Assembly: GCA_017965425.1 (NCBI GenBank)
Contig: JAGCPY010000065.1
Location: forward strand, 1-64,000
Reading direction: 5' to 3'
DNA length: 64,000 nucleotides
DNA from: Bacteroidaceae bacterium
Lineage (GTDB): Bacteria; Bacteroidota; Bacteroidia; Bacteroidales; Bacteroidaceae
Position numbers and translations under genes: made by a program. The notes beneath the pieces were generated by a model, which saw nothing but the letters and a program-made list of their open reading frames with translations, was not told the origin of the DNA and did no database searches. Shown here in pieces: positions 3,285-59,356 of the stretch (its first letter is position 1; every line of letters starts with the position of its first letter).

Positions 3285-3345
3285 ATTTCGTTATTCTGTG
3301 ACTTCGTTATCACGTTATCTCGTTATCACTTAATCACGCCATACC
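3285..3345 (+). repeat. CGTTATC spacer repeat upstream of the tyrosine kinase gene
   Basis: The spacer carries at least four degenerate copies of a unit of about 8-9 bases reading (T/A)CGTTATC. The same motif appears in the leader at 227-279 (reverse orientation) and in front of the DUF5107 gene at 25686-25745. Its recurrence only in spacers suggests a shared expression-related or replication-slippage origin. Confidence 0.55.
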
Positions 3346-3360
3346 CCCATTCATAACATC

Positions 3361-9104: not shown

Positions 9105-9116
9105 CAACCATGGTAT

Positions 9117-11379: not shown

Positions 11380-11382
11380 CGT

Positions 11383-12387: not shown

Positions 12388-12389
12388 CC

Positions 12390-14374: not shown

Positions 14375-14483
14375 CACATATTTTTTACTTTGGGAGTAAA
14401 GAATTCGCCCGAATATTGGCAACATATTTCCTTTGTGGGCTTTTGGCCTAACTTATTAATTTCACGAAATTACATTTTCATCA

Positions 14484-15485: not shown

Positions 15486-15499
15486 GTAATTCCAGTCCT

Positions 15500-20873: not shown

Positions 20874-20895
20874 GTCATTTTCTTGTTTTGCGCCG

Positions 20896-20926
20896 CAAAG
20901 GTACATGAAAAAGCGTAGGTGACAAA
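20896..20926 (-). promoter_or_regulatory. Bacteroidetes-type promoter for the glycyl radical enzyme unit
   Basis: On the minus strand, TTTG (20926-20923) is followed after 19 bases by TACCTTTG (20903-20896), an excellent match to the primary sigma-factor consensus of Bacteroidetes. Transcription would begin a few bases upstream of ATG 20873, giving a very short leader. Confidence 0.82.
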
Positions 20927-27159: not shown

Positions 27160-27176
27160 TATTGGTGTCCGGTAAA
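27160..27176. repeat. Solo TATTGGTGTCCGGTAAA terminal sequence
   Basis: Identical over 17 bases to the end of the repeat at 17139 and close to both ends of the element at 55229-55523. Nothing else of the element is visible here. Confidence 0.6.
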
Positions 27177-27178
27177 AA

Positions 27179-27216
27179 CCAACAGTGCCTATGGTTCGAA
27201 CCGTAGGCACTGTTGG
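27179..27216 (-). terminator. Intrinsic terminator of the secreted-protein cluster
   Basis: A 19-bp stem with a single G-U position (27216-27198 with 27197-27179) is followed on the minus strand by TTTTTACC. It lies 37 bases after the stop of the last cluster gene and is the strongest terminator in the window. The stem has essentially no loop beyond the centre. Confidence 0.85.
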
Positions 27217-27252
27217 TATATGTGAGGAATCCTGTCACCTAAACAACCTCTG

Positions 27253-27807
27253 CTACTTCAGTTCTACGCGGAACGTGGTCGCATTCATCGAAATGACGTA
27301 CTTGCCACGAGGCAGTTCCGTCAGCACCAGCGCGTAGGTGTTGCCCTCGATGTCTTTGTCCTGCCATTGCAGGCCAGATTCCGTCATGATGTTGAGATGG
27401 CTGCCCTTGGGCAGTCCGAAGAAGAGGATCTGCTCATTCATGCTACCTGCTGCCGTGGCAGATGCAGGCAAGCCAGCGGTGGAGGTGCCGGCGAGAAGCG
27501 CTTTGCCAGGCTGCTGACGCACGACATCATAGCCATCGTAGGTGATGGTGGTCAGCGGCGTTGACACCACTGTCTGCTTCGGATCCTGCTTCACCGTGGG
27601 ATGAACCCGGAAACAGGCGAGTTGCTGCGTGGCGTCTCTCATGCGCAGGGTGACACACATGCCATTATTGGGCAGGGAGTCACGAGCGGCGACGGAAGTG
27701 ATACCCGACGCCGACGCGGAAGAACCGCCAGCGGACAACGTGGACTTGGAGCAGGCTGTCAAAGACAGGATGCCAAGTAATAGGACCGTAAAGAGAATAT
27801 GCTTCAT
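27253..27807 (-). CDS. Small lipoprotein, last gene of the secreted-protein cluster
   Basis: A 184-residue protein with signal peptide MKHILFTVLLLGILSLTAC, a clear lipobox, and a Ser/Ala/Gly-rich linker after the Cys. The rest is predicted to be beta-rich (CVTLRMRDATQQLACFRVHP, TTITYDGYDVVRQQPGKAL, GNTYALVLTELPRGKYVISM). No domain is recognised. The start at 27807 (or the adjacent ATG 27810) is chosen for the signal peptide; an in-frame start at 27909 overlaps the upstream gene. The missing retention-type acidic +2 signal suggests outer-membrane or surface placement, but this is uncertain. Confidence 0.75.
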   Translation of the reverse strand: MKHILFTVLLLGILSLTACSKSTLSAGGSSASASGITSVAARDSLPNNGMCVTLRMRDATQQLACFRVHPTVKQDPKQTVVSTPLTTITYDGYDVVRQQPGKALLAGTSTAGLPASATAAGSMNEQILFFGLPKGSHLNIMTESGLQWQDKDIEGNTYALVLTELPRGKYVISMNATTFRVELK

Positions 27808-27857
27808 CATATAAATTATTAATCGTAAATTATGAATTGTCCAATTCTGAATTCTCC

Positions 27858-30800
27858 TTAAGGGTTTTTCTTTTCCCTCACGGGACGTATCGAGCGTCCG
27901 TAGAAGCATCGTCCGGCCTCATTGTGCGGTTCCTTTCCTTCGTCCTCCACGTTGTTGAAGTGGAGTCGCCAAGCATTGGTCTTCTCTTCGGGCGTGAGTT
28001 CCTTATGGTCGCCTTCGCCGATGCCTTCTTCGCCTTCTTCTTCCCCAATCTCTATCTCATTGGATACAGCGCTTTCCACTTCCTCCATTTCGGGTGCCTG
28101 GTCGCCGGTCCAGTAGCAGCCTCCGATGCCGTTGCTGTAGACCTTTTTTCCATACTTGTTTCCCGCAGCGGGCAGGAACATGCTGACACCAGTAATCCTG
28201 CTGGTAAACTTCATACCCTGCACTTTTTTGATGGTAGTCCATTCCACGTCGCAGTTGTCTATCAGCTCCTGAAATTCTGCTTGGGTAGGCATTCGCCAGA
28301 CGTTTCCTGCCTTCTTGTCCGCCTTGCCCTCACTCCATTCCATGGCCACGTCATACTCCTTGTCGCCCGCAATGTTCTTCTTGGAGGGCAGCTTATAGTT
28401 GGCTGCGGTATATTCTTTCTTTGTTGTCTTCTCGCCCCAGGCATAGTAGTTGCCGAATTGATATTCAAGGGATGCTCCGACGTTGTAACATGCCCAGTCC
28501 ACACTAAGCCCCATATCTTTCACGCATCGCTCTTCTGCTTCTTCGTCCACCTGGGTGGTCAGCTTCTTGATGTCGCCATAGATGTATTTCTTGGTATCCC
28601 CGACCCAATAGGATGCCCAAGCGCGGTAAATATATTCGGTGGCTGGTGTGAGGAGGTCAGCCCTTATTTCTTTGAAGTAGAGTTTGTCTTCTTCGCCCTT
28701 ATCATCTAACTGGGGGTTCTGTTTGTTTCTAGTATTGGTTTTATCTGTTTTATCGACTACCACGAGGTCGGAATCATCTAGGGTGAGTGAAGAATTGCTG
28801 GATCCATCTTTGTTTTCGGCCTTTTTGATGATAAATCCCAGCTCTATATCCTTTCCCGTTGCTTCGCCGTAAGACTGCAGGCCGAGTGCATAGCCGTTCA
28901 TAAAACAATGGTGCTTGGCGACTCCAGTGGCTTCCTCCGTGAATACTGATGGCGGTATGACGATTTCTGTCTCTGGTGTGGCACGCATGGGGCTGAAAAA
29001 GGCGGCATCAAATAATGGTGCAACTTTATAAACACCTCGCTTTATTTTCGAGAATTCCGTAGTGTAGGTTCCTTCATCACTATTGAACCATCCCTTCTCT
29101 TTCTTGGGCGTAAAAGAGGTGGCCACTTCCGTCTGTGTGCCGTCAAAATTCACTCTGTAAATTCCTAAACCGAGATCCGCACTGAGGAAAGTGTTGGTGA
29201 GCTTGTCGAATTTAGGATCTCCCTTGTCAGGATTCTTGTAAGGGGTGGTGAATGAAAGGACACCCCGCTGATTGAAGCTCTGTTCCCAGTTGGATGTGAG
29301 TTTCGGAACTCCGAAACCGGGAAAGACGCCAAAACGATTCACCTTAAAATCAAAGCCCTTTCCATCGCCGATGTTCCAATCCGCCAACTGATCCCTCAGA
29401 CTGAACTTCTGTTCTGCCTTGGTTCCCTCGGCAAAGATGACCTTGAAGTCAGTTTCCAAGTGTAGCTTCGTCATCAGGTGGGAAGGAGCCCACGTCTGAT
29501 AGAAGCGTGCATATTCATTAGTCGGTTCTCCCTTTGCCTTCTCAAAATTAAGCTCAACCCACGGACCGACCTTGAGTTCAACTTTCGCCGTGAGCACCCT
29601 CTCATTGATGAGCGAGAGACCAACAGTGGGCTTCCATGCAAACCAGAAATAAAGTTTACCTATATGGTCAACATCGTCGCCTAAATCAGATTCTCCGAAC
29701 TTGAAACCATTACTATATAGTCCTGACTTGTCAACATAACCACCATTTGCTTTTTTAGTCATATCGGTGGCATGTGTCCCAGAACTATTGAGTTCCAACT
29801 CCACATCAAATATTTTCTTAGCAGTGAAGGAATAAGAGACGTCCATCTCTCCGCCAAGCTTCACGTAGAACTGAGTAACGTGGATATTCACTTCACCGAT
29901 TCGAATAGGCGGTGACACTGGAGTCGGAGGAATCCATATCCCAATGGCTGGAACGTCTGGGATAACCTTCTTTATTTCATGATCCCATTCAGCATTGACT
30001 TTCAGCTGTGCTGTGCCAGTAATGGACGGAAGCAGAGTAGGCCGCCAATATAAATAAAGCGAAGGAATAATCCAGTCGTCTTCATCTTTGAAAAAATCAA
30101 TAAGGAACTTTTGTCTGTAGGCTATATCGAATGTCATCCCCGCGTTGATGGCGTATGAACCATGGTTCATCCATGCCGGCTTTTCTTCCACGAAGTCTAA
30201 CAAGTTCTTTTCGTAAGGCCCTAATGTCTGCTTGGTGCCGCTAATATATTTATCGGTATAATAGATATCCTTCTTTTCCTTCTCATCATAATATTTCTCT
30301 GTCTTCGGCTCCCATTTGAAATCATTGCTGAAGGGATCGAATTTCTTTTCTCTGTTACCCGAATGTGGTACGTCCCAGTTCTCGTTATTCTTGTCGGCCA
30401 ATGGCGGAGAGGTAAACATTACAGCGGTGAACCGGCGGAAAATGTCGCCGAGCTGTATGTCTGGGGTACATATGACAAGCACGCCATCAGCCGTGTGCTG
30501 GGTGCGCAGTACACGACCGGCAAATTGAATGCTCTGCTGGGTGCCTGAAGGCATGGCGAGAATTACTTCCCCACGTTCAGGCAGCAAGTCACGTGGAATG
30601 TCGCTGCGGAAAAGGATGCTGGTACTGTCGGCACGCACCACAAAGGCACGTTGTTCGTCTGAGAGCATCACCACATCGTCCTGCAACTCTATCTTGGGTT
30701 GTTCTGTCACGACGCTATCAATCACGGCCAATGGAATGCGGTAAATACTGTCCGGGGTATATACGACTTGCGTCACAAAGTCGGTGTGCTCCACACCATC

Positions 30801-31004
30801 GGCATCGATGCGCGAGAATTTGATGCTGTCCACCTCGCTGTCGGCAAACGCGTTGAAATGGTCGTCGTTACGATAGGTGTACGACACATTCTTCACCAAG
30901 GTGGGCTGTTCCAGATTCTGGTCCTGAGCTTGCTCTTGGTTCTGGGCGTATGACGCCTGCCATGCCAGGGTGAGCAGCACGAGAATATTCAGTAGGCGTT
31001 TCAT
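27858..31004 (-). CDS. Large secreted protein with C-terminal Fib_succ_major-like domain
   Basis: A 1048-residue protein with a type I signal peptide (MKRLLNILVLLTLAWQASYA, cleavage before QNQE). The main body is beta-rich and not recognised; it includes an FN3-like stretch (about 655-850: AYRAWASYWVGDTKKYIYGD). From about residue 860 a Fibrobacter-succinogenes-major-paralogous-like domain is clear: LSVDWACYNVGA, NYYAWGEKT, WRMPTQAEFQELIDNC, MFLPAAGNKYGK, GCYWTG and GRSIRPVRE. It carries an acidic Glu/Gly insertion (about 1000-1020). No standard sorting tail follows. The start overlaps the upstream stop as ATGA (31001-31004). Confidence 0.82.
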   Translation of the reverse strand: MKRLLNILVLLTLAWQASYAQNQEQAQDQNLEQPTLVKNVSYTYRNDDHFNAFADSEVDSIKFSRIDADGVEHTDFVTQVVYTPDSIYRIPLAVIDSVVTEQPKIELQDDVVMLSDEQRAFVVRADSTSILFRSDIPRDLLPERGEVILAMPSGTQQSIQFAGRVLRTQHTADGVLVICTPDIQLGDIFRRFTAVMFTSPPLADKNNENWDVPHSGNREKKFDPFSNDFKWEPKTEKYYDEKEKKDIYYTDKYISGTKQTLGPYEKNLLDFVEEKPAWMNHGSYAINAGMTFDIAYRQKFLIDFFKDEDDWIIPSLYLYWRPTLLPSITGTAQLKVNAEWDHEIKKVIPDVPAIGIWIPPTPVSPPIRIGEVNIHVTQFYVKLGGEMDVSYSFTAKKIFDVELELNSSGTHATDMTKKANGGYVDKSGLYSNGFKFGESDLGDDVDHIGKLYFWFAWKPTVGLSLINERVLTAKVELKVGPWVELNFEKAKGEPTNEYARFYQTWAPSHLMTKLHLETDFKVIFAEGTKAEQKFSLRDQLADWNIGDGKGFDFKVNRFGVFPGFGVPKLTSNWEQSFNQRGVLSFTTPYKNPDKGDPKFDKLTNTFLSADLGLGIYRVNFDGTQTEVATSFTPKKEKGWFNSDEGTYTTEFSKIKRGVYKVAPLFDAAFFSPMRATPETEIVIPPSVFTEEATGVAKHHCFMNGYALGLQSYGEATGKDIELGFIIKKAENKDGSSNSSLTLDDSDLVVVDKTDKTNTRNKQNPQLDDKGEEDKLYFKEIRADLLTPATEYIYRAWASYWVGDTKKYIYGDIKKLTTQVDEEAEERCVKDMGLSVDWACYNVGASLEYQFGNYYAWGEKTTKKEYTAANYKLPSKKNIAGDKEYDVAMEWSEGKADKKAGNVWRMPTQAEFQELIDNCDVEWTTIKKVQGMKFTSRITGVSMFLPAAGNKYGKKVYSNGIGGCYWTGDQAPEMEEVESAVSNEIEIGEEEGEEGIGEGDHKELTPEEKTNAWRLHFNNVEDEGKEPHNEAGRCFYGRSIRPVREKKNP

Positions 31005-31486
31005 GATAGTACGATTTTATTGAACTGACCATTGACCTCAAACAGATAGACTCCAGAAGCGAGACGGTTCAGATTGATAGCGCAGTGGCCAGAGCGGTGG
31101 GTGGTCATGATGTGTTGTCCGTTGATGGTATAGAGACTGATGGTGCTCTCTCTTGGTAACTTGCTGAGCCGCAGTTGGCGATCAACAAGTTTCCATTCCA
31201 CCTGTTGAGCGTTACTGTTGGACGCGTTCTCTATACCGGTGCCGTCTTCCATCCTGAACGTATAGCCTTTCACCTTGTTACGAGGCCAAGTCTTGGTAGA
31301 AAGGGTGGTGGTGACGACGAAGAGGCTGTCCTGATAAGTGATGCGGGGCTCGGTGAACAGCGGCACTTCTTCTATGGTTCCATCGGTGAGCGTAATCACC
31401 ATCGTATTGAAATGTAGTTTCTCAACACGTTGCGCAGACAGCCCCAATGGGATAATAGCAAGGATAAAAAGGAGAAAATGTCTCAT
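31001..31486 (-). CDS. Short secreted protein with type IX-like sorting tail
   Basis: A 161-residue protein with a signal peptide (MRHFLLFILAIIPLGLSA) and a C-terminal part built like a type IX secretion sorting domain: LRLSKLPRESTISLYTINGQ, then INLNRLASGVYLFEVNGQFNKIVL. The middle holds two or three beta strands only. Such a small passenger is unusual; it may be an anchor or adaptor for the larger partners. Both ends overlap neighbours by four bases. Confidence 0.78.
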   Translation of the reverse strand: MRHFLLFILAIIPLGLSAQRVEKLHFNTMVITLTDGTIEEVPLFTEPRITYQDSLFVVTTTLSTKTWPRNKVKGYTFRMEDGTGIENASNSNAQQVEWKLVDRQLRLSKLPRESTISLYTINGQHIMTTHRSGHCAINLNRLASGVYLFEVNGQFNKIVLS

Positions 31487-32175
31487 TGTGTAATGGGTAT
31501 TAATTGTTTCAACCGCCCGTGGACGGCTCCATCAAAAGTCATGTTGAATTTCAGTTCTCCCGTGGAGAACTCGTAGGGCAGGTAATAGCGGAAACTGATT
31601 TGGCCGCTGCTGGGACGGTCGTGCCAGATGCGGAACAGTGTGTAGGTGACGCCTCGGTCGGTACGCACCTCTCCGTAGCCCCGTAGCTCGTCGTTGATGA
31701 AGGCGGCGACGCGCAGTCCCTTGGCATCATTATGATAGCCCTTCACATTGACATCGGCATAGACCAACATGTCGTAAGGATAAGTCTCGTACAGCTCACG
31801 CCAATCCTCGATGACCACCACGTGGCAGGTGTCTTCAAGACGTTCATTGACCGCCACCACCCGAACATCAGCCTCGCCGGTCTGGGTGCCAAACACCGCC
31901 CCGTTTTGCAGCACATTGATGACACCCGTCGTGTCTATAATATCCCAGAAGGAGGTGATTTTGGTCACAGTGTCGGGCTTGACGAGCATATTTAAGCGGA
32001 TGGTGTCGCCGAGCATCAACACTACGCTGTCACGATCCAATGCCATGATCAGAGCTGCAAGGGGTTCATCCACGGTGATTTCGCAGGACGTGAGCGCCGT
32101 CAACCCCAGGCAGAAGCTGAACGCCACGGGTGCCAGCTTTCGTGACACAAGTTGATGAAATCTGTTCTTGATCAT
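31483..32175 (-). CDS. Lipoprotein with Ig-like (BIG2-type) domain and AFINDELRG module
   Basis: The 230-residue protein has a lipoprotein signal (about 1-29, LTALTSC). Residues about 40-115 look like a bacterial Ig-like domain: DRDSVVLMLGDTIRLNMLVK...GAVFGTQTGEADVRVVAVN. Residues about 140-225 hold RVAAFINDELRGYGEV followed by YTLFRIWHD. This is the same module as in the two large proteins at the head of the cluster. ATG 32175 is preferred over the in-frame 32277 because only the former begins a signal peptide and avoids the upstream gene. Confidence 0.78.
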   Translation of the reverse strand: MIKNRFHQLVSRKLAPVAFSFCLGLTALTSCEITVDEPLAALIMALDRDSVVLMLGDTIRLNMLVKPDTVTKITSFWDIIDTTGVINVLQNGAVFGTQTGEADVRVVAVNERLEDTCHVVVIEDWRELYETYPYDMLVYADVNVKGYHNDAKGLRVAAFINDELRGYGEVRTDRGVTYTLFRIWHDRPSSGQISFRYYLPYEFSTGELKFNMTFDGAVHGRLKQLIPITQ

Positions 32176-32204
32176 ATCATCTGTTGAATATGGAAGATTT
32201 GATA

Positions 32205-34622
32205 TTATTGCTGCTGTTCTTCTGTGACGTTGACGTTCACCGCATTGCTCCATGGACTGTATCGGTCGTCGAACCAACGTAACTGTGCGCGCACGTTGAC
32301 AGCCATGCCCGGACTTACCCCTTTGAGTCGTCCGATGCGGGCGTGCTTCTCTGTGTGCTCGTAGCTGGCCAACGGCTCAAACTGTCCGTTGCCACGGTCT
32401 ATCTCCACATAGCACCAATAGCCTTCGGGTGCTTCTGGGGTGGTTTCCCAATCCAGTGTCAGCTGGCGTGCCTTGCTGTCGTAGGTTGCAGAGAGTGTCA
32501 CGGGCACGTTGATGATGTCGGGGCCATTGTGACGCACACCCACGGGATGGCTCAGGTCGCTGACGATGTGAGCTGTGCTCACAGCCTCAATAGCATAGAA
32601 GTAGCGGTTCTTGCGGTCAATGGGCGGCATGTCCTCGGTGTGGACGATGTTGCCCTTCACGTGGTTGGCATCCACCACCTGGACGATGACCCAAGGTGAA
32701 TTGTCGCCCTTCTGCCGACGGTACATGCGATAGGCAATCACATTGTGCTCTGCCTGCGTGCGCCAGTCGATGAACACGGTGCTGTCGTTCTGCCACACCG
32801 AGTCAACAACACAAGTAAAGGGCTTGTCATAGCTGAGACGCTGCACCTGAAGTATCTCGCTGAACTCCGACGAGTTGCCCGAATAATCCACAGCCTTCAA
32901 CCGGTAGTAAATATAGCGTTGGTTCAGTCCCGTCACCACTGTGGTGTCGTAAGTCACAGTATCTTGAATGACACCCAATCCCTTCACCTGCAGAAAAGCG
33001 TGTGTGGTATCGTTGGCTGCATAGAGCTGGTAACCGCGCACGTCACGTTCCTGATTGGGTGCCCAGCGCAGTTCCACGACACCATTGGGAAGCATGGTGT
33101 AGCTCAGGTCAGTGGGTGCGTCAGGCGGTACGACATCGTCTAACACAATGGGTTTTGGCATGGACGAACCCATATTGCCCGCGTGGTCTACGCTGGCAAT
33201 GATAATCATACCAGACGTCAGGCCGTTAATCTGCACACGCTTCACAGTTTCACCTGGCGGGATAAGGTCATCGTGCAGGGGAATCCAGTCATTGGAAGTC
33301 ACTTCATTGTAATAGAAAATTTTGTAGCCTGCGAGGTCTGCTTCGAGCGAGTCCTTGAAGAAGTGTACATCCACAAACACGTCCACTTTGTCGCTGCGGT
33401 CCACATTCATAAAGGTAATGGTAGGCGGCATTGGTGCGATGATGTCACCGTGGTAGGTGCTGTGTACAGGACTCCAAGGTCCTTTCTCTGCAAAACTGTC
33501 ATAACCTCTGATTCTGTATTCGTATGTTCCCAACTCCTTCACCTTGTCTGTATACTGGTTCTGATAAACAGGGCGTTCATCGCTGCTGTAGGTGATGAAG
33601 GGGCGGTGATTCAGCTGTGTCCATTCTCCTCCTGGTGTGCGACGTTCGATGTCGTAGGCCGTGTAACCTCCGGCATTCAGCGGCCAGTAGAGAATGACAT
33701 CGTTTCCAGAGCTGACACTGTCGGTGATCACGGGCTCAAAGGGCGGATGAACGTATGGAGTGTTATCCAGTTCCACCACATCGCCGTCCGCAATCAATTC
33801 ATCAGCAGGAATGAGCGGTTCGACAGAATAGATATAATGATGCCCTGGTTTCACGTTGCGGTCAGTGAAACGCATACACATGGCCTCTGCCAAGTCGGCA
33901 CGGAACTCGGCAATCAGCAGAGCATAGGCGTAGCGGGTCTGTTGCTCGTCATAGATTTCCATGATAGCCGACATACCATTTCCTTGTCCAGTAGACTTGG
34001 CATGCGTCATAGCATCTTCCAGGGTGCTGCCTGTTTTCCACATCACCTGTGCTGCCATACCTGCCATGGAATCTGTGGGCAGGAAGCGTTGCTGCATTTG
34101 CTCCAACGAGAGGGGCAGGAAGTGCTGTTCCAGCGTGTCAACGTCAGTACCTTCTTCTGCTGACATCCGGGTGATACGGTAGCCGTACTGTAGGCCAAGC
34201 CGCCACGGTGCAAACTCCTTGAATGCCCAGCGCAGTACGATGCTGTCGCCATAGGCACGCGCCGTAATCATAACAGGAAAACTCTCAATGCGCGGACGTG
34301 TCACAGTGTCAAGCAACGCCAAGCTGTCCTCGGGGATAATGGTGCTGTCGGAACGGAACACGTAAGGATTCATCCTAGAGCCGTAGGGGTCTTTCTCCAC
34401 TTCCTTTTTGTCCCGCACCACGCTATCCACCTTGACCTCGACCTTGCCAGGATCTTGGGGGACAGGGTCATGAGGCACTGGAATGGTGTCGTTCAGAGGC
34501 GACATCACGTGTGCGTAGCCGGACAACGTTAGCGGCTGCTCTATGGAGGTGAGGGCTGCCCCCACTCCCAAAGGAATTAGCAGGAGTGGCAGGATGAACA
34601 TCTTATTTCTTCGTGTATGCAT
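32205..34622 (-). CDS. Secreted multi-fibronectin-type-III protein
   Basis: An 805-residue exported protein. The signal segment is MFILPLLLIPLGVGAA (starting at Met 8, or at Met 1 with a basic n-region). A Pro/Asp-rich linker follows. Four to five FN3-like domains fill residues about 290-800, for example APTDLSYTMLPNGVVELRWA with YYRLKAVDYSGNSSEFSE, and VIAYRMYRRQKGDNSPWVIV. FN3 arrays on Bacteroidetes surface proteins act as spacers or adhesive modules. No sorting tail is seen, so it may be periplasmic or need a partner. It lies 61 bases after the giant gene. Confidence 0.8.
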   Translation of the reverse strand: MHTRRNKMFILPLLLIPLGVGAALTSIEQPLTLSGYAHVMSPLNDTIPVPHDPVPQDPGKVEVKVDSVVRDKKEVEKDPYGSRMNPYVFRSDSTIIPEDSLALLDTVTRPRIESFPVMITARAYGDSIVLRWAFKEFAPWRLGLQYGYRITRMSAEEGTDVDTLEQHFLPLSLEQMQQRFLPTDSMAGMAAQVMWKTGSTLEDAMTHAKSTGQGNGMSAIMEIYDEQQTRYAYALLIAEFRADLAEAMCMRFTDRNVKPGHHYIYSVEPLIPADELIADGDVVELDNTPYVHPPFEPVITDSVSSGNDVILYWPLNAGGYTAYDIERRTPGGEWTQLNHRPFITYSSDERPVYQNQYTDKVKELGTYEYRIRGYDSFAEKGPWSPVHSTYHGDIIAPMPPTITFMNVDRSDKVDVFVDVHFFKDSLEADLAGYKIFYYNEVTSNDWIPLHDDLIPPGETVKRVQINGLTSGMIIIASVDHAGNMGSSMPKPIVLDDVVPPDAPTDLSYTMLPNGVVELRWAPNQERDVRGYQLYAANDTTHAFLQVKGLGVIQDTVTYDTTVVTGLNQRYIYYRLKAVDYSGNSSEFSEILQVQRLSYDKPFTCVVDSVWQNDSTVFIDWRTQAEHNVIAYRMYRRQKGDNSPWVIVQVVDANHVKGNIVHTEDMPPIDRKNRYFYAIEAVSTAHIVSDLSHPVGVRHNGPDIINVPVTLSATYDSKARQLTLDWETTPEAPEGYWCYVEIDRGNGQFEPLASYEHTEKHARIGRLKGVSPGMAVNVRAQLRWFDDRYSPWSNAVNVNVTEEQQQ

Positions 34623-34682
34623 ATATTTTTCGTTTTATTCCTATGTTAACTACTATCAGTTCGCCGCATTGGAGTGGTCTAG

Positions 34683-47075: not shown

Positions 47076-47086
47076 TTTATCGGATT

Positions 47087-48862
47087 CTACTTCTCTTTGA
47101 CTTTCCGCTTGATTTCCAAGAGAGTGAAGGTATAGCTATAGTTGAAACTTACGTTGACGTCCCAGTTCTTTGTAGTGGCGGAGTTCTCTGCATAGGTGAA
47201 TGTCTGCTTGTAGTTGTTATAGCCCGCAGAGAGACCGAACTGGTGAACTTCCTTGATAGAATAGCTTGAAGAGAGGAAGCCGCCAAAGGTATTGGTCTTC
47301 GTACCTTGAGCTTCGTTGATAGCATAGCTCAGGCTGGCATCCAGATGCAGATCTTTGTTTTTCAGGAATGCACGTCCCGTTCCGAACGACCACATATTGG
47401 TGGTAAAGTTGCCGCTCGAATTTTTCGACCTCTGGTGGTTATAAGCCACATTGAATGCCATTTCCCAAGGATCCACGTTGAGGGAGTAGTTGGTACCGAT
47501 AGCATGGGTCGTCACATCGCCTGCACCTCTGGTGAGGATGTTGCGATCCAGATTCTTTGAGAAGTTGTAGCTTACGCCGATGCCATGTAGAAGCTCATCT
47601 GTCTGGAAGTTATAGTTGGCAGATGAGGTGAGACTATGCATCAGGCGATCCACTTTAGAACTGTCGGTCACCTGTGCCAAACCGTCGGTCTGTAGCTGCC
47701 GGTAGCCGTTGTATGCGGCATTGAGGTTGAGGGAGTTGCTCACACGCCAGTTCAAGGCCCCATTATACACAAGTCCCTTGGTGGTATAGAGCTGATCGCC
47801 GCTAAGGTTGTCCTGCTGGTGGCTGAAGTTACCGTTCACGGTTACCCGTCCTCTGAAGAGACTGAGATTAGTTCCCAACCCGAAGCTGCTGTAGTTGTTG
47901 CTCACGTAGCCAGTTCCAAGTGTGGCATATTGGGGCTGCACGTATTTATATTGAAGGGAGAGATTGAAGTTACGCATACTATAGTTCAAAGCAGCATCAC
48001 CAGCAAAACGTGAATTACTGGTGTACTTGGCATCGAAGAGCTTGCCCCATTTGCCAATAATGCTGTCGGGTACGCCTGCGGCTCGGGTGTCGTAGGTAAA
48101 GAGCGAAGTGGCTGCATTGGCCGTCAAAGAGAAATGCTTAAAGAGGCTGACACGTCCCTTTACGCCTATGGCCAGATTCTCTTGGGGAACGATGCTGTTC
48201 TGCCAGTACTCGTCTATACTGCCGAAGCGGTCTTTGGCCTTGAACACGAAGAGGTCTATATAGTTTTTACCCGTGCCATAGCCAACCTTGAAACCCCAGC
48301 CAAAACGAGCGTACTGAGGTGAGCGAGCAGCAGGATCTGTGGGATCATCGCTGATGGCACGCTTCAATCTGCCATAGAAGGCGCCAAAACGGATGTTGTG
48401 TCCGCCATATTCCAAACCCACACCATAGAAAGGCGAGTTATACACGTAATTGGAGAACGACATGGAGCGTTCGCCAAGATGAAGTGTCCAGTCATGCCAC
48501 GACGGGCTCATGCTCAGAGAAAACTGGGGATAGCTCCAGGAGGTAGTACCGTTGCTCAGGTAGAAGGAGAATGGCATGTTGATGCCGTAGAACGAAATGT
48601 TCAGATTGGCATACAGCGTGTTGGACAGCTTCGCACGTCCATCATTGCCCATCGACGAGTGGTAAAAGGTATTCTGCGTGCCTATGGCACCTGTGATGAT
48701 GAGCGGGTCACTCTTGGCGATCTGGTCGATGCTCTGGGCAAAGGCCCCTCCCAATCCACACAAGGGAGGGATGTGGAGTGCCAGCGCGAGGACTGTCAGC
48801 CTGAGCATCGTCCTGACAGAAGAACCTCGGTATTTCGCACCTTCGTGTGTATGCCTGATCAT
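47087..48862 (-). CDS. Predicted outer-membrane beta-barrel protein
   Basis: A 591-residue exported protein. After the signal peptide (ending near GGAFA-QS) it is almost entirely alternating amphipathic strands rich in Tyr, Asn and aromatic ends, such as LYANLNISFYGINMPFSFYL, FGWGFKVGYGTG, FNLSLQYKYVQP and WDVNVSFNYSYTFTLLEIKR. Twenty or more strands can be counted by eye. No plug or TonB box is seen, so it is not a standard TonB-dependent receptor. An alternative start at 48808 gives a shorter signal peptide. It stands 12 bases before the giant gene, which makes it a candidate outer-membrane partner or exporter for it. Confidence 0.8.
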   Translation of the reverse strand: MIRHTHEGAKYRGSSVRTMLRLTVLALALHIPPLCGLGGAFAQSIDQIAKSDPLIITGAIGTQNTFYHSSMGNDGRAKLSNTLYANLNISFYGINMPFSFYLSNGTTSWSYPQFSLSMSPSWHDWTLHLGERSMSFSNYVYNSPFYGVGLEYGGHNIRFGAFYGRLKRAISDDPTDPAARSPQYARFGWGFKVGYGTGKNYIDLFVFKAKDRFGSIDEYWQNSIVPQENLAIGVKGRVSLFKHFSLTANAATSLFTYDTRAAGVPDSIIGKWGKLFDAKYTSNSRFAGDAALNYSMRNFNLSLQYKYVQPQYATLGTGYVSNNYSSFGLGTNLSLFRGRVTVNGNFSHQQDNLSGDQLYTTKGLVYNGALNWRVSNSLNLNAAYNGYRQLQTDGLAQVTDSSKVDRLMHSLTSSANYNFQTDELLHGIGVSYNFSKNLDRNILTRGAGDVTTHAIGTNYSLNVDPWEMAFNVAYNHQRSKNSSGNFTTNMWSFGTGRAFLKNKDLHLDASLSYAINEAQGTKTNTFGGFLSSSYSIKEVHQFGLSAGYNNYKQTFTYAENSATTKNWDVNVSFNYSYTFTLLEIKRKVKEK

Positions 48863-48900
48863 ATCGTTGGTCTTTTTGGGGGTAGTCGGTATGTGGATGA

Positions 48901-51306
48901 TTATCTCACGGCCACTTTACGCCCCTTGTGAATGTAAATGCCTTTCCGGGGAGCCTGACGCAGCCGGATGCCCTGTAATGTATAATAGCAGTCTTCCTGG
49001 GCAGCTCCATTGATGTCCAGCACCAGCGTGTTATTATCGTTATGGATGAGAAGCGGTTGTCTCATGGAACCCACAAGGGGTTGCAGTTCTGTCGTTCCCT
49101 TTATATCGTAATAGGCGTCGGAATCTTCATCATAGAGTCGCATACGAACCATCTCGCCGGCATCACCGTGAACCGTAAGGAAGAATATGCCTCCTTTACT
49201 GTAAGCCGTTCCACGGCAATCACTGCCCACGAAAGCCCCTATCTGGCAGTTATCCATCGAAGAAAAGCCGTTGCCGAGGGTAGCTATCATGCACATATTG
49301 TCCATGAAACGTCGGCTGTCACAGGGACTGAATGCGCTGTGTCTGTGACGAGAGGATTCTTTCTTCATGTGAGAGGGAGCGAGGTTGTCTTCTTCTTCCT
49401 CAGACTCGTCTTCCTCCTCATAGTCCTCTTCGTTTTCTTCATCGTTAGGAACATCACTGACATAGCCTTCCGCCTCAAGTTTCAACGACGTATAGCCTTG
49501 TTCAGAATAATACATGTAAGCCTCGCCATAGCGCAACGCTTCCAGTGAACCGTTCCACTCTCCATCATAGAATACAGCGAAGGCATCCAGGGCCACGATC
49601 ATGTCGTCTTCATGGGCATTACTCACATAGTTTGCAATGGGATGGCTACAATAATAGGGGTTGCCGAACCAAGTCCATTGCTTTTCAATATTGATAGTGC
49701 CTCCAGCGTATGGTGCCATGATGCCTTCTGGTTGTTCAAACACATGGGAGGCATCTGCGGCCATGTGAATCTTGTAACATTCGTTTTGGCGAAGGCCGCT
49801 ATCATAAAGCGAACCTATATAGCCATAATCGGGGTCGTTGAAAAGATTTTGGCTCTGAGAACGAACCTCATTGAGACTGGAACCAAAGGCAGCCTCAAGA
49901 GTTTTGCCACTGATGGCAGTTGGCTGATAGCAAGTCACCCATTGCCAACCTTCGGACAGTTGCAGGGGCACCACCACGTTAATTCCACCGATGGTCTTGG
50001 CAACGTCTTCAGGATGAATAGCGTTGAGGATAGATGTAGTTCCTGGGAAGAGTCCTTCAATGGGTATCTCAATGAAGGTGGCACCATCCTCCACCTTATA
50101 ATTGCCCAATTGGGCAATGAGTGTATCGGCAATGGAAAGGTTGATGTTTTCTGAAGTGAGGACTGCACCTTCAGGCTGTGCTTTCAGCATGAGCATGGCC
50201 ACGCTGTCACGACACACCTGCATAGACGTGACACTCATGGAGACGCCTGTGAGGGGAAGCGCTACATAAACCGTGATGTCCAGGGTAATGGTAGTATCAG
50301 CCTCGGTGTAGCAATTAAGATAAGTGAGGGAGGTGGTGATGACAGACGAACCCGTCTTGTGTGCCAGGAATATCTGCTGGCTGCTTGCCTCGTCATGGCG
50401 AGTGGAAACCACAGAAGGGTCACTGGACGAATAGCTCACGTTGATGCTGCTATAGTCGCTGGGACCTATGTAGATGAGACCGTTCACGTCATCAGTCACA
50501 TCAAGGGTTTCCTGCCCGTTCATATATACGATAAGGCTGTTATCACCAGTAGTTATCAGTGTACGTGCGGGATTGATCACGCTGACAGTCACGCCCGTAC
50601 TACGTATAGCGGGGTCTGCATCGGCTACTGCCACCACAGTGGCTACACCCTCGCTGATGGCATTTATATTGCCCGATTCATCGTTGAAAGTGAGCATGTC
50701 AGGCACCGTCGCCTGCTCCAGCTCCCAATGGAAGGTCTGTTTGCTTTCGACAGGCAGTCTGGTGATGAGTGCGTCGAGGCGCTCACGGATATCGATTTCC
50801 GACCGATAGACAATGATATGGTCTTTTGTGACCTTGAGCTCTTCTATGGGGATGCCTTGTCCCAGATAGAAGCGGAATGCTACGGGAGCACTCGGCATAC
50901 CATAGGTGTAGTCGCCACGGAAAGTAATGGTCTCTTCCGGAGTGATATCATAGTCTTTACCAGAAACGCGGTCATGCATGATGAAGTTGACCGTCTGTCC
51001 TGTTTCATCAATGCCGCCCATGCCTACATCGCCCCAAATGCGGAACACAAGAACCTTGGTGTCGTCGGACAGGGTCAACGTTTTGCCCACGGCACGACAT
51101 TCATCGCCTATGAAGGCACTTACTTCATAGTCCGTGTTCGCCGTCACGTCGGTCATGTCGCTAAGCAGTCGTGCATAGACCACGGTGCTGTAGCCGCCTG
51201 CCGCTGGGAGTGCTGCCGGAATGGAATGCCCCGCCCGCACCGTCATGGGGAGAGTGGCGAGCAGCATCATCACTAAGATGAGCTTTAATATGCCTTTCTT
51301 TTTCAT
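48901..51306 (-). CDS. Large secreted surface protein with two CRG modules and sorting tail
   Basis: The 801-residue protein has a signal peptide (MKKKGILKLILVMMLLATLP...VRAG). Residues about 45-130 hold EVSAFIGDECRAVGKTLTL with VLVFRIWGDVG; the same module recurs at about 680-750 (IGAFVGSDCRGTAYSKGG). An Ig-like BIG2 stretch is near 170-260. A Trp-rich module (WQWVTCYQP, NEVRSQSQNLFNDPDYGYIG) covers about 455-620, followed by a Glu-rich run (about 620-645). The C-terminus CYYTLQGIRLRQAPRKGIYI plus a basic end fits Prevotella-type type IX sorting tails. It is paralogous to the next protein upstream. Start 51306 begins the signal peptide; 51333 is an upstream alternative. Confidence 0.83.
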   Translation of the reverse strand: MKKKGILKLILVMMLLATLPMTVRAGHSIPAALPAAGGYSTVVYARLLSDMTDVTANTDYEVSAFIGDECRAVGKTLTLSDDTKVLVFRIWGDVGMGGIDETGQTVNFIMHDRVSGKDYDITPEETITFRGDYTYGMPSAPVAFRFYLGQGIPIEELKVTKDHIIVYRSEIDIRERLDALITRLPVESKQTFHWELEQATVPDMLTFNDESGNINAISEGVATVVAVADADPAIRSTGVTVSVINPARTLITTGDNSLIVYMNGQETLDVTDDVNGLIYIGPSDYSSINVSYSSSDPSVVSTRHDEASSQQIFLAHKTGSSVITTSLTYLNCYTEADTTITLDITVYVALPLTGVSMSVTSMQVCRDSVAMLMLKAQPEGAVLTSENINLSIADTLIAQLGNYKVEDGATFIEIPIEGLFPGTTSILNAIHPEDVAKTIGGINVVVPLQLSEGWQWVTCYQPTAISGKTLEAAFGSSLNEVRSQSQNLFNDPDYGYIGSLYDSGLRQNECYKIHMAADASHVFEQPEGIMAPYAGGTINIEKQWTWFGNPYYCSHPIANYVSNAHEDDMIVALDAFAVFYDGEWNGSLEALRYGEAYMYYSEQGYTSLKLEAEGYVSDVPNDEENEEDYEEEDESEEEEDNLAPSHMKKESSRHRHSAFSPCDSRRFMDNMCMIATLGNGFSSMDNCQIGAFVGSDCRGTAYSKGGIFFLTVHGDAGEMVRMRLYDEDSDAYYDIKGTTELQPLVGSMRQPLLIHNDNNTLVLDINGAAQEDCYYTLQGIRLRQAPRKGIYIHKGRKVAVR

Positions 51307-51390
51307 TGCTGTCAGTCTTTTCCGCGGGGGCACGCCCGCATCATCAATGCACTTCGCGCGTGTGCGCGTTATATAATAAAAGGTAAATCT

Positions 51391-51424
51391 GCACGGCCGC
51401 CGAACGCAGAGCCGACGGCCGCGC
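51391..51424 (-). terminator. GC-rich hairpin between the first two cluster genes
   Basis: Arms 51391-51403 and 51412-51424 form a 13-bp stem as minus-strand RNA only if two or three G-U wobbles are allowed; the plus-strand version has mismatches at those places. ATTTACCTTTTATTAT follows. It may be an attenuator or partial terminator that lowers transcription of the rest of the cluster. Confidence 0.5.
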
Positions 51425-51442
51425 AGAAGGAGAGAAAAGGGA

Positions 51443-54124
51443 TTATTTCTTCACGATCTTACGGAAGCTTCCGTCTGCCATCCGTTCGATGCTGATGCCA
51501 CGCTGGCTGCCGTTGATGCGGCGACCGCTCAGGTCATAGGCTTCTGAAGACTGCCGTGCAGCATCCACCTTGTTAATGCCAGTGGCAGCGCCAACGTTCA
51601 GTTTCACTGGAGCACGAAGAGAACCCTTGACCAGACTGAAGGAAACGGTGCCGTCTACAGGCATCATCTCGCCAGTATTGTTGTTCACCAACTTGAAGGT
51701 TACGGATTCGCCACTGGTGCCTACAGCACTGACGAACATCTTGCCATCCACTACCACACGGCCACGGCCACGGCACTCGTCATTGACGAAAGCACCCAGA
51801 GTGTAGTCTTCGGGGTTGTCGAGACCCTGAATCTCTGCGACCATAGACATGTTGTCTGCAAAGGCGTGAACGTCATATTGGAACATGTCGGCTACTGCAC
51901 GGCGGGCAATTTGCCGTCCGGCTGCATCACCGTTGGTTTCACCCTCTGCGTCATTGACCACAGGTTCCAGATAAGGACTGAAGTTGAGAATTGTCTCTTC
52001 CACGCCGTTGCTGAAGTAGAGCAGGCCCTTGCCTTCTTTCAGAGCGAAGGTTTCGTCAGCCTTCCAGTCTCTCCCGTCGAAGGTGGCAAAGCTTTCCTGC
52101 GTTTTGATGAGGTCACCCTCAGCAAATTGGAAGTCTGGTCCAAACATGTCGCGAATGCGGTCAACGGTAATATCAAACTCATACGGATAGTTCACCCAGT
52201 TGTAGCCTGGATAGATGGTCTTGCTGGAGCCTTGCGTTGGCTTATTCGGCGACATCACGGCATCGCCACTCCACTTCACCGTAATGGCCTTGTTGGTCTT
52301 GACTTTGTACATGCCCTCGTCAGAATTCAGGGCTTTGATCTTGCCAACGTATCCATAGACGGGATCATTCCAGAGCAGTTCCTGCTGCGAACGGATTTCC
52401 ACGATGTCGCTCTGTGTAAAGAGATCGTTCACTGCGCCTCCAGGAGTGACCAGAGACAGCCATGTCCATCCTGCGCTGAGAGCTTCTTCCTTGGAAATCG
52501 TGATCTGACCGCCGCAAAGTTCCTGGCCTTGATAGGTCACCATGAAGCTGGGAGTTCCGATATAGAGGGGCAGGATATGGAATACATATACCTTCTGTCC
52601 ACTCGTAGCTGAACCTTCAGCATTCTCCTGTACGACTTCGATTTGTTTAGCATAGGGTAAAGCCTCAAAGCGGTTTTCAAACGCAATCTGCAGGTCGGCA
52701 GGATCGAAGGGCTCGTTGGCCGGGTTCGTTACATACACGTAAGCAGGTGTGTCTGAGCTTTGAATGCCTTTCTTGAAGTCTGTGATGCCAGAAGCCTTGG
52801 CTGTCACGCTCAGTGCACTGACGATGTTCACCGACACCGTGTAGCTGCTTTGGCCTTGCATAGCTGCGGAAGGAGTGATGCCATCCTTGAGGGCAACAGT
52901 CACGCGTACGCTGCCAATCTTAATGGCCTTGCCGTCTGCATCCACATACCCAGTTTCACCAAAGTCATAGGTTACCTCGCTCTTGCCGTATGCGCCCGGA
53001 TCTGTTCGCGTAGGCCATTGCAGCGTCTGGTTCGCTGCGATAGCTTCATAGACATTGCTTCCGTAGTTCACCTCGATAGTCTGGTTTGTAGGCGCGATGG
53101 TCAAGGGACGTACATAGACGGTCACTTCTATCGAAGCAGGTTCGCCCTCATAGGACTTATCTGCCGGCACAATGTTCACAGTATATTTTCCACCTTCCGT
53201 AAACCTGCCATTGGTCAGCACATCTCCTTCGCATTCTAAACTATATCCCTTATTGCTGGCATCCTCTGGCAAGATGGTGATGTGGTCTGCCATGAATGAT
53301 GCGAAGTCATCGAAGGCATAGAAATCCGTTTTGTCGAGGTCACAGGTGATGCTCGTCACCGTCACAGCCGTGATGGTCACACTAATGGTAGTCGAAATGG
53401 GGACGAATTGCCTGTTGACGCCTTTGGGATCACCATAGGTCACATAGAGAATCACACCATAATTGGCTTCTTCAGCGGGTGTGACGGTCAATTTGGTGCC
53501 ATTGAACGACAGCTCATTCGTATAGTTTACATTCCACTCGTAATTGACCGGGCTGATGATAAAGCTCTCGCCAAGCGGCTCGTAAGCCCTGTCAGGCGTG
53601 CTGTAGGACAGCGTGATATACTGCGCCAGATCCTCTGTGTAGGGGAAAGCAGATGCAGCCTGGTTGATGGTGATAGTCTCAGGCAGCGTCACGTCCATCA
53701 CAGCGTCCAGGTTCAGCGTAAGTTGCTGGGCTTCACCCGTGAAAGTCGCTTTCGTCTTGAACTCATACTCGATGTTGTCGTAGAAGGCACGGATCGTGAT
53801 TTCTTTACCCACTTCACTTTCTTTGCCGTTCGTACCATCGTCACCCCATACACGCAGGACGAAGTATTCCGTTCCTATTGTACCTTCTGCAACGACAACC
53901 GGTTCGGTGGTATTGACAGATACACGGCATTCTTCACCGATGAACGCAGCCAGCTCCAGGCCACTGTTGGCTGTAGCAAGCTCACCATTGATGTTCACCT
54001 GGACATTAAGAGGCGTTGAGGTCGGATAGAGACGCTCTGGGTTCGACGGACCCTGCCAGTGTTGCGCCATTGCTGCCAACGGGAGCAAAAGCGCCATTGC
54101 TGTTAAAAGATTTTTAATGTTCAT
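51443..54124 (-). CDS. Large secreted surface protein, paralogue of the next cluster gene
   Basis: An 893-residue protein with signal peptide MNIKNLLTAMALLLPLAAMA. The module ELAAFIGEECRVSVNTTE...FVLRVWGDDG is at about 55-130 and again near 775-850 (LGAFVNDECRGRGRVVVDGK). Between them are MBG/Ig-like strands (about 265-420: SVTITAVTVTSITCDLDKTD, TIEVNYGSNVYEA). A Trp-rich module (WTWLSLVTPGG, VEIRSQQELLWNDPVYGYVG) lies near 570-720. The tail AYDLSGRRINGSQRGISIER plus a basic end is a Prevotella-type sorting domain. It is the first gene of the cluster, preceded by a promoter. Confidence 0.85.
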   Translation of the reverse strand: MNIKNLLTAMALLLPLAAMAQHWQGPSNPERLYPTSTPLNVQVNINGELATANSGLELAAFIGEECRVSVNTTEPVVVAEGTIGTEYFVLRVWGDDGTNGKESEVGKEITIRAFYDNIEYEFKTKATFTGEAQQLTLNLDAVMDVTLPETITINQAASAFPYTEDLAQYITLSYSTPDRAYEPLGESFIISPVNYEWNVNYTNELSFNGTKLTVTPAEEANYGVILYVTYGDPKGVNRQFVPISTTISVTITAVTVTSITCDLDKTDFYAFDDFASFMADHITILPEDASNKGYSLECEGDVLTNGRFTEGGKYTVNIVPADKSYEGEPASIEVTVYVRPLTIAPTNQTIEVNYGSNVYEAIAANQTLQWPTRTDPGAYGKSEVTYDFGETGYVDADGKAIKIGSVRVTVALKDGITPSAAMQGQSSYTVSVNIVSALSVTAKASGITDFKKGIQSSDTPAYVYVTNPANEPFDPADLQIAFENRFEALPYAKQIEVVQENAEGSATSGQKVYVFHILPLYIGTPSFMVTYQGQELCGGQITISKEEALSAGWTWLSLVTPGGAVNDLFTQSDIVEIRSQQELLWNDPVYGYVGKIKALNSDEGMYKVKTNKAITVKWSGDAVMSPNKPTQGSSKTIYPGYNWVNYPYEFDITVDRIRDMFGPDFQFAEGDLIKTQESFATFDGRDWKADETFALKEGKGLLYFSNGVEETILNFSPYLEPVVNDAEGETNGDAAGRQIARRAVADMFQYDVHAFADNMSMVAEIQGLDNPEDYTLGAFVNDECRGRGRVVVDGKMFVSAVGTSGESVTFKLVNNNTGEMMPVDGTVSFSLVKGSLRAPVKLNVGAATGINKVDAARQSSEAYDLSGRRINGSQRGISIERMADGSFRKIVKK

Positions 54125-54221
54125 AAGGAAATACTTTAAAAGTGAGTAAAATACGTTATTTCAATAAGTTATGTTGTGGTTAGTGTGATAAAAAACAGCT
54201 TTCAGGTACATTTTAATGGCA

Positions 54222-54252
54222 CAAAGTTAAACTTATTTTAAATATCAACCAA
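54222..54252 (-). promoter_or_regulatory. Promoter of the secreted-protein cluster
   Basis: On the minus strand TTGG (54252-54249) stands 19 bases before TAACTTTG (54229-54222). The -7 box is perfect and the -33 box has one mismatch. The leader to ATG 54124 would be about 90 bases. Confidence 0.65.
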
Positions 54253-55710: not shown

Positions 55711-55876
55711 ATATATCTGGGAACGTGAGAAATTCAAAGATATACATACTACCTAAACGACAAGTTAATGCCTATGCGATAGCGTAGGCACAACTTATCA
55801 GGTAGTATAGGCAATTCTCACGGCCTCCAGATATGGATAAGTAGCGTGACCTACGCTATTTCCATGTCCGGAGGCC
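55711..55876 (+). ncRNA. Structured leader RNA with two competing folds
   Basis: Fold 1 nests four helices: 55713-55720/55827-55834, 55725-55734/55813-55821 (one bulge), 55746-55754/55800-55808 (9 bp perfect), and an apical arm 55762-55766/55792-55796 continuing as 55769-55777/55782-55790. A separate hairpin is 55842-55847/55853-55858. Fold 2 pairs 55822-55837 with 55861-55876 (16 positions, one mismatch and one G-U) and excludes the first helix of fold 1. The U-G pair at 55775/55784 is allowed only in plus-strand RNA. It ends about 65 bases before the helicase start. I do not recognise an Rfam family. Confidence 0.6.
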
Positions 55877-55941
55877 TGCCGTTGGAAAAGCCTATAAACT
55901 TACCGATAACGTGTGTGCTGATTAAAAACGTTATCGCAACT

Positions 55942-59322: not shown

Positions 59323-59324
59323 TA

Positions 59325-59353
59325 ACTTGTCAACTCATCAACTCGTCAACTAA
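59325..59353 (+). repeat. TCAACT(C/T) spacer repeat
   Basis: The 34-base spacer before the methyltransferase consists of four near-copies of (G/C/A)TCAACT, at 8-9 base period. It is analogous to the CGTTAT spacers elsewhere but of different sequence. Confidence 0.6.
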
Positions 59354-59356
59354 CTC

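What the first reader, a model, noticed from the sequence alone, without database searches (positions are those of the whole stretch)
27253..54252. Nine-gene, ~27-kb cluster of exported proteins built around a 4130-residue giant
Nine genes on one strand, with gaps of 11-136 bases or ATGA overlaps, lie between a consensus promoter and a strong terminator. Every product has an export signal. The order is two paralogous surface proteins, a non-TonB barrel, a giant LRR protein, an FN3 protein, an Ig-like lipoprotein, a short sorting-tail protein, a Fib_succ_major-like protein and a lipoprotein. The barrel adjacent to the giant suggests a dedicated outer-membrane partner. I infer a surface assembly (fibre or adhesin complex) that I cannot match to a named system.
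Basis: partly seen in the sequence, partly recalled or inferred. Interest (0 to 1): 0.78.

Follow-up and report, generated by a model that had tools for sequence, protein, structure and literature searches.

The report
Barrel-partnered giant surface protein cluster
A gut bacterium carries a nine-gene set that probably builds something on its surface: a very large exported protein with its own outer-membrane partner, distantly related to a family described as toxin carriers, and a similar barrel-plus-giant pair turns up in many other members of its phylum.

Summary
The nine genes are real, in the stated order, between a Bacteroidetes-type promoter and a strong hairpin. All nine recur in order in two related genomes, and the core (surface protein, barrel, giant, FN3 protein, lipoprotein) has two more copies in the same genome. 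A barrel profile hits 74 of 395 sampled Bacteroidota genomes.

The giant's N-terminus is homologous to the TANFOR domain, and a Tannerella forsythia protein with four TANFOR repeats sits directly behind the same kind of barrel. The leucine-rich repeats are a lineage-specific tip on a ~2,000-residue shared trunk. I found no toxin domain or T9SS sorting tail on the giant.

Across 25 dereplicated loci the barrel's divergence tracks the giant's first ~970 residues (rho 0.89) but not the rest (partial -0.02). I read this as a dedicated barrel docking the N-terminal third of a modular surface adhesin. Linkage or recombination blocks could give the same pattern: FN3 tracks the C-terminal part.

The parts
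54222..54252 (-). Promoter: TTG (-33), 20-bp spacer, TAACTTTG (-7), Bacteroidetes consensus
   Evidence: the consensus itself is recalled, not from a call
51443..54124 (-). Gene 1, surface protein 1 (893 aa), signal peptide, sorting-tail-like C-terminus by eye only
   Evidence: tail not detected by NCBIfam
48901..51333 (-). Gene 2, surface protein 2 (810 aa as listed; likely ATG at about 51306), paralogue of gene 1
   Evidence: E 4e-22
47087..48862 (-). Gene 3, outer-membrane barrel (591 aa), the conserved partner
   Evidence: (OMP_b-brl in 7 of 58 homologues)
34683..47075 (-). Gene 4, giant (4130 aa)
46461..46970 (-). Giant residues 36-205: divergent TANFOR-homologous domain
   Evidence: profile hits the four T. 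forsythia repeats that one search identifies as TANFOR
44166..46970 (-). Giant residues 36-970: block that co-varies with the barrel
40536..43178 (-). Giant residues 1300-2180: later part of the shared trunk, co-varies with the FN3 protein instead; contains a sub-threshold DUF6603 stretch
36546..38843 (-). Giant residues ~2745-3510: sub-threshold EF-hand-like motif plus leucine-rich repeats, lineage-specific tip
34806..35888 (-). Giant residues ~3730-4090: about four tandem ~75-residue repeats of unknown family
   Evidence: read from the translation; no repeat tool run
32205..34622 (-). Gene 5, FN3-type protein (805 aa), conserved third member of the core
31483..32277 (-). Gene 6, lipoprotein (264 aa as listed; likely start about 32175, LTSC lipobox by eye), shares a module with surface proteins
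31001..31486 (-). Gene 7, short protein with T9SS type A tail (161 aa)
   Evidence: (TIGR04183, 26.1 bits, cut-off 23)
27858..31004 (-). Gene 8 (1048 aa), remote counterpart of the last gene of the other clusters, with a sub-threshold FISUMP-like end
   Evidence: weak; bridged by L143
27253..27909 (-). Gene 9, lipoprotein (218 aa as listed; likely start about 27807)
27174..27217 (-). Terminator hairpin with short U run

Best explanation
The cluster encodes a surface assembly whose core is a two-partner module: an outer-membrane barrel and a giant exported protein related to the TANFOR family. Shown by sequence: the barrel gene usually directly precedes a giant gene across the phylum; in the Bacteroidales set the barrel and the giant's first ~970 residues diverge together; the giant has a shared trunk of about 2,000 residues and a replaceable C-terminal tip. 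Inferred: all products pass the inner membrane by Sec; the giant's N-terminal third docks on or threads through its cognate barrel, which holds it at the outer membrane, while the rest of the trunk plus the FN3 protein form a stalk that displays the tip (here LRRs and ~75-residue repeats) for binding a target such as host, plant fibre or another microbe; lipoproteins and surface proteins complete the coat. How the giant crosses the outer membrane, through its barrel or by T9SS, is open.
For: Full nine-gene order in L057+L140 and L059+L142; in L058+L141 one surface gene and genes 3-8. Three paralogous clusters in the own genome. Directly behind the barrel, a same-strand ORF of 1000 aa or more: 64 of 69 named loci with room (in 4 of the 5 misses a giant follows after a small, probably spurious ORF; in the fifth, L126, it is split), 15 of 20 phylum-wide loci, 3 of 3 own; control 8 of 206 other same-strand neighbours. 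TANFOR hits occur in 9 of 395 genomes, all 9 among the 74 barrel genomes; 4 of 10 TANFOR places directly follow a barrel and 9 of 10 lie within 12 kb of one. Barrel against giant residues 36-970: rho 0.89, against 1300-2180: 0.52 (partial -0.02), against the neighbouring surface gene: 0.38, in 25 dereplicated loci; step near residue 970. Up to about residue 2000 the window giant is matched by 54-68 of 86 other giants, beyond 2220 by 4. Orthologue identity: 80% in the first 2050 residues (L057), 54-60% in the C-terminal part.
Against: Co-variation can come from recombination blocks: FN3 tracks the giant's C-terminal part, its physical neighbour (rho 0.78; with the barrel 0.52; 18 loci). Phylum-wide, the order breaks in 5 of 20 loci, only 4 of the 15 giants there match the window-type N-terminal profile, and none of 19 upstream ORFs matches the surface-protein profile; a broader profile of residues 36-1000 reaches 12 of 24 distant giants. 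The barrel assignment rests on a Pfam barrel model matching 7 of 58 members (an irrelevant model, Met_gamma_lyase, also matches 7), amphipathic periodicity and a C-terminal Phe.
Confidence: 0.55

Rival explanations
1. The giant is a polymorphic toxin carrier like the published TANFOR proteins, and the variable C-terminus is a toxin delivered to competitors.
For: N-terminal homology to TANFOR; variable C-terminal part; PMC7073777 reports toxin C-termini and DNase activity for one member.
Against: No toxin family in the whole window giant or in the C-terminal parts of 20 other giants (Pfam: only LRR/DUF285, fn3, CarboxypepD_reg and related models, in 3 of 20); no immunity-like gene was seen next to it, the next gene is the FN3 gene. 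Unknown toxin folds are not excluded: most C-terminal parts have no family at all.
Confidence: 0.1
2. The giant is an ordinary T9SS substrate and the barrel is a PorP/SprF-like anchor, as for SprB and SprF.
For: SprA (T9SS) is in the own genome and, by my reading of the two listings, in all 74 barrel genomes; type B cargo binding PorP-like barrels is published (PMC9143113, abstract); gene 7 has a T9SS tail.
Against: No type A or type B tail on the window giant, on 20 C-terminal parts by Pfam or on 8 by NCBIfam; no PorP/SprF model among the NCBIfam hits of 58 barrels at E<=0.01. SprA is in 303 of 395 genomes, so the overlap says little.
Confidence: 0.2
3. The cluster is a nutrient-capture system, for instance for polysaccharide or glycoprotein, controlled by an adjacent hybrid two-component regulator, with the barrel as uptake channel.
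For: 12 of 38 named loci with room have a divergent regulator-like ORF directly upstream; the one beside the own C85 cluster is a TPR / histidine kinase / receiver / AraC protein; many loci come from ruminants; lipoproteins are present.
Against: No enzyme, SusC/D or TonB-dependent receptor family among the nine; no such regulator among the neighbours of the window cluster that were scanned; an uptake channel would not need to co-vary with the giant's N-terminal third.
Confidence: 0.12
4. Adjacency and co-variation only reflect gene linkage: neighbouring exported proteins inherited together and recombined between paralogous clusters, without a physical complex.
For: FN3 tracks the part of the giant next to it; several clusters per genome allow gene conversion; supported tree conflicts between blocks.
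Against: Correlation is a plateau (0.77-0.85) over ~950 residues and then steps down rather than decaying; the surface gene directly upstream of the barrel is low (0.38) although adjacent, with the caveat that it is multi-copy; barrel-giant adjacency recurs in distant genomes.
Confidence: 0.25

Closest known systems
TANFOR proteins (TIGR02542; PMC7073777)
   Same: Large exported protein with a homologous N-terminal domain; FN3 and T9SS-tailed neighbours; a T. forsythia protein with four TANFOR repeats sits directly behind the same barrel family (L129).
   Different: Window giant is below the reach of the TIGR02542 model; no toxin found on trunk or tip; the word barrel does not occur in the main text of that paper.
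SprB/SprF and PG1035/PorP (T9SS type B cargo with PorP-like barrel; PMC9143113)
   Same: Cargo plus an outer-membrane barrel that is proposed to anchor it at the surface (abstract).
   Different: No type B tail found on the giant; the barrel is not matched by such a model; the co-varying part is N-terminal. That SprF is smaller is recalled.
Two-partner secretion (TpsA/TpsB), recalled
   Same: Giant next to a dedicated barrel, recognition expected at the giant's N-terminus.
   Different: No POTRA or Omp85 family hit and no TPS domain.
BspA-type LRR surface proteins
   Same: LRR or DUF285 repeats at the tip.
   Different: Repeats are an add-on to the trunk and no T9SS tail was found after them.

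Membership tests
TANFOR family (TIGR02542) | Match to the TIGR02542 model | tested here: not met
   No hit at E<=1 with the full giant, at E<=10 with its first 400 residues, or in the own genome at E<=1
TANFOR family (TIGR02542) | Homology of the N-terminal domain to the eponymous T. forsythia repeats | tested here: met
   Profile of window-type N-domains (residues 36-205) hits all four repeats of L129 (whole-protein E 7e-10, single repeats 2e-4 to 0.02, in a set of 24 distant giants of which 9 were hit); these repeats are TIGR02542 at 2.9e-252
TANFOR family (TIGR02542) | Signal peptide and large size with the domain at the N-terminus | tested here: met
   signal peptide by reading only
TANFOR polymorphic toxins | C-terminal or adjacent toxin domain with immunity gene | tested here: not met
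   No known toxin family; unknown toxin folds cannot be excluded
T9SS type B cargo with PorP/SprF partner | T9SS sorting tail at the giant's C-terminus | tested here: not met
T9SS type B cargo with PorP/SprF partner | Barrel of the PorP/SprF family | tested here: not met
   Only TIGR04565 and TIGR02001 (one member each) match among 58 barrels at E<=0.01; structural relation not testable
T9SS type B cargo with PorP/SprF partner | T9SS present in the genome | tested here: met
   SprA at G000:C25; 13 places with a type A tail match
Two-partner secretion | Omp85 barrel with POTRA domains | tested here: not met
   No such family
Outer-membrane beta-barrel proteins (general) | Barrel topology with C-terminal beta-signal | tested here: inconclusive
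   OMP_b-brl in 7 of 58 (best 3.8e-6); at threshold 3.3, 21 amphipathic peaks against a shuffle mean of 8.0, maximum 18, but no clear excess at a low threshold; 15 of 18 distant homologues in A2 end in Phe, the three own-genome barrels do not; no structure

The most novel reading that the evidence does not exclude
An undescribed, phylum-wide outer-membrane route: a dedicated large barrel recognises the N-terminal third of a TANFOR-type giant and exports and/or anchors it without a T9SS sorting tail, a two-partner-like system unrelated to TpsB and PorP/SprF, which would also be the missing delivery partner of the published TANFOR toxins.
Probability: 0.3. Interest if true: 0.82.

Novelty: new variant of a known kind. 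Interest (0 to 1): 0.6.

Why it matters
How TANFOR giants leave the cell is open in the one paper found on them; it only hypothesised T9SS. A barrel often encoded directly in front of them names a concrete partner and a candidate docking region (residues ~36-970), both testable by one deletion and one pull-down. It also shows that relatives of the family include giants without any recognised toxin, with LRR or DUF285 tips, in gut bacteria.

Tried and rejected
LRR protein as the core: rejected, the LRR part is confined to orthologues. Zero coverage beyond residue 3361 is an artefact of locus ends; orthologues continue to about 3918-4129. T9SS co-occurrence as support: all 74 barrel genomes have SprA by my reading of the listings, but SprA is in 303 of 395 genomes and 14 of the 20 listed negatives (of 92) belong to one family, so it is uninformative. 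Gene 8 against the last gene of the C4 and C85 clusters: weak directly (E 0.018; hhalign 7% probability), bridged by L143 (5e-20 and 1e-4). Head-domain profile of residues 2190-2790 found none of 24 distant giants. The FN3 test meant to separate docking from linkage came out on the linkage side (many FN3 sequences were partial). Barrel and trunk profiles against the PDB: nothing. Counting amphipathic strands did not discriminate at a low threshold (36 against a shuffle mean of 32), only at higher ones. Literature. Of PMC7073777 I read parts 1-3 of 6 and six passages; of PMC9143113 the abstract and outline; of all others only listings. None of these listings or passages was seen to describe this barrel; no supplements were read.
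Full report
Observation. The nine ORFs, their order and their spacing are as described. The promoter is of the Bacteroidetes type at 54222-54252, and a strong hairpin with a short U run follows the last gene at about 27174-27217. Family searches give little: LRRs in the giant (LRR_4 3.7e-34), a T9SS type A tail in the 161-aa protein (TIGR04183, 26.1 bits, cut-off 23), and sub-threshold DUF6603 and FISUMP matches. Flanking genes look unrelated: a sugar transporter and a TPR/DUF5107 protein on one side, a helicase and an Eco57I-type methylase on the other.

Copies in the same genome. The barrel has two paralogues in the own genome (46% and 44% identity). Reading those contigs shows two further clusters with the order surface protein, barrel, giant, FN3 protein, lipoprotein, last protein (C4: giant 2401 aa; C85: giant 4504 aa). 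Window genes 7, 8 and 9 had no BLAST match among the cluster proteins compared there.

Orthologues. A genome scan gave 77 named loci, mostly uncultured Prevotellaceae, Prevotella and Bacteroidaceae, many from ruminants, plus Segatella baroniae DSM 16972, Tannerella forsythia ATCC 43037, Petrimonas and Proteiniphilum. Three (L057-L059, barrel 82-85% identical) are orthologues of the window cluster. With their downstream stretches, L057+L140 and L059+L142 hold all nine genes in order; L058+L141 holds one surface gene, although upstream sequence was available, and genes 3 to 8 before the contig ends. L060+L143 shows counterparts of genes 1 to 8 at lower identity, and its 782-aa protein bridges window gene 8 (5e-20) to the last gene of the C85 cluster (1e-4).

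Phylum. A profile of the three own barrels hits 74 of 395 sampled Bacteroidota genomes, own included, 45 of 171 genera, but only 17 of 201 of the own family at a stricter threshold: widespread and patchy. I fetched neighbourhoods for 20 of the other 73 barrel genomes, taken from the better-scoring ones. A same-strand ORF of 1000 aa or more directly follows the barrel in 15 of 20; in the named set in 64 of 69 with room, and in 4 of the 5 misses a giant follows a small, probably spurious ORF; own genome 3 of 3; control 8 of 206. The window-type N-terminal giant profile matches 58 of the 64 but only 4 of the 15; a broader profile of residues 36-1000 matches 12 of 24 distant giants. So for part of the distant giants the link is position and size only. 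Where the giant was complete and a next ORF seen, the FN3 profile matched that ORF in 10 of 15, 26 of 32 and 3 of 3; at least one of the named misses, L120, does have the FN3 gene there, hidden in the count by an antisense ORF. The upstream surface protein is seen in 63 of 74 named loci but in 0 of 19 phylum-wide ones, so it belongs to the Bacteroidales version only.

What the giant is. The N-terminal domain (residues 36-205) was made into a profile from Bacteroidales cluster giants only. Searched against 24 distant giants it hits 9, including the four tandem repeats of the T. forsythia giant (L129; whole protein 7e-10, single repeats 2e-4 to 0.02). Those repeats are the TANFOR family TIGR02542 (2.9e-252). 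The window giant itself is not reached by TIGR02542. TIGR02542 occurs, below its cut-off, in 9 of 395 genomes, all among the 74 barrel genomes; of 10 places, 4 lie directly behind a barrel, 9 within 12 kb of one, and 1 (G208) about 276 kb away. Thus the barrel is a regular companion of TANFOR proteins. The paper that described them (PMC7073777; parts 1-3 of 6 and passages read) examined neighbourhoods by known domains and does not use the word barrel in its main text.

Architecture. Of 86 other giants, 54-68 match the window giant at residues about 61-2000; coverage falls to 39 at 2041, 15 at 2161 and 4 at 2221 (some giants are cut by locus ends). In the first 2050 residues of 22 giants no trunk-wide Pfam family appears: DUF6603 matches 3 below its cut-off, CarboxypepD_reg 3; no PDB relative. 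Beyond the trunk the window has LRRs and ~75-residue repeats, and C85 has DUF285/LRR_5 repeats. Pfam found no family in the C-terminal parts of 9 further giants and, among 10 more distant ones, fn3-type and CarboxypepD_reg-type domains in two. No toxin family was found.

Co-variation. For 53 loci with an adjacent surface gene, barrel and giant above 2100 aa, pairwise protein distances of the barrel were compared with those along the giant. In 150-residue windows the rank correlation is 0.77-0.85 up to residue 986, then 0.25-0.61 (pairs with barrel distance above 0.3). In 300 half-samples the N-part always exceeded the C-part and the surface gene. Mean distances of N segments (0.58-0.68) and trunk C segments (0.60-0.73) overlap, so saturation is an unlikely cause of the step. 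After dereplication to 25 loci: barrel-N 0.89, barrel-C 0.52, barrel-surface gene 0.38; partial barrel-N 0.84, barrel-C -0.02, barrel-surface 0.16; 0 of 1000 label permutations reached the first partial value. Trees agree: of 33 supported barrel splits, 24 are shared with the N-part and 6 contradicted, against 16 and 14 for the C-part and 18 and 13 for the surface gene. The counter-test: the FN3 protein, encoded behind the giant, tracks the giant's C-part (0.78) more than the N-part (0.59) or the barrel (0.52) in 18 loci. So there are two blocks, barrel plus N-third and C-part plus FN3. This fits two physical sub-complexes, and also fits recombination between paralogous clusters with a breakpoint near residue 970.

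Other parts. The lipoprotein profile also matches three of the four surface proteins compared (E 6e-9 to 2e-6 in a 22-protein set). A divergent regulator-like ORF adjoins 12 of 38 named loci with room; the one beside the C85 cluster has TPR, histidine kinase, receiver and AraC domains. None was seen at the window cluster.

Mechanism and verdict. Most likely a barrel-docked giant surface adhesin with a modular tip. Adjacency, co-variation and tip replacement are shown by sequence; docking, export route and adhesion are inferred. It works like SprB/SprF or two-partner secretion but fails membership tests of both; by homology it is a divergent branch of the TANFOR family with no recognised toxin. 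I rate it a new variant of a known kind, with the barrel family and the two-block structure as the new points.

Noticed in passing
55846-62647: PLD-nuclease/helicase gene followed by an Eco57I-type methylase gene, with NYN and DprA-like genes after them: looks like a restriction or defence island directly beside the cluster.
   Followed up: no
8001-16000: A stretch of 39-41% GC in a window otherwise mostly 44-53% GC, with many same-strand ORFs of 279-425 aa: possibly a horizontally acquired surface-polysaccharide cluster (inference, no family search done).
   Followed up: no
L005:11779-14724 and 12 of 38 named loci: A regulator-like ORF (TPR / histidine kinase / receiver / AraC in L005) is encoded divergently next to many sister clusters, but was not seen at the window cluster.
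   Followed up: partly
L045:3895-6351 and other barrels with open frames of about 820 aa in group f6: L045's barrel carries a C-terminal extension of over 200 residues, charged and helical-looking, perhaps a periplasmic anchor.
   Followed up: no
18474-20906 and 17431-18450: Pyruvate-formate-lyase-like glycyl radical enzyme with a radical-SAM protein that looks like its activase.
   Followed up: no
L006:5800-13374: The C85 giant ends in eleven DUF285 stretches plus BspA-type LRRs, a different tip on the same trunk.
   Followed up: partly
27253-27909 and 31001-31486: Genes 9 and 7 may be distant relatives: the L140 orthologue of gene 9 also hits gene 7 (27%, 3.6e-6).
   Followed up: no
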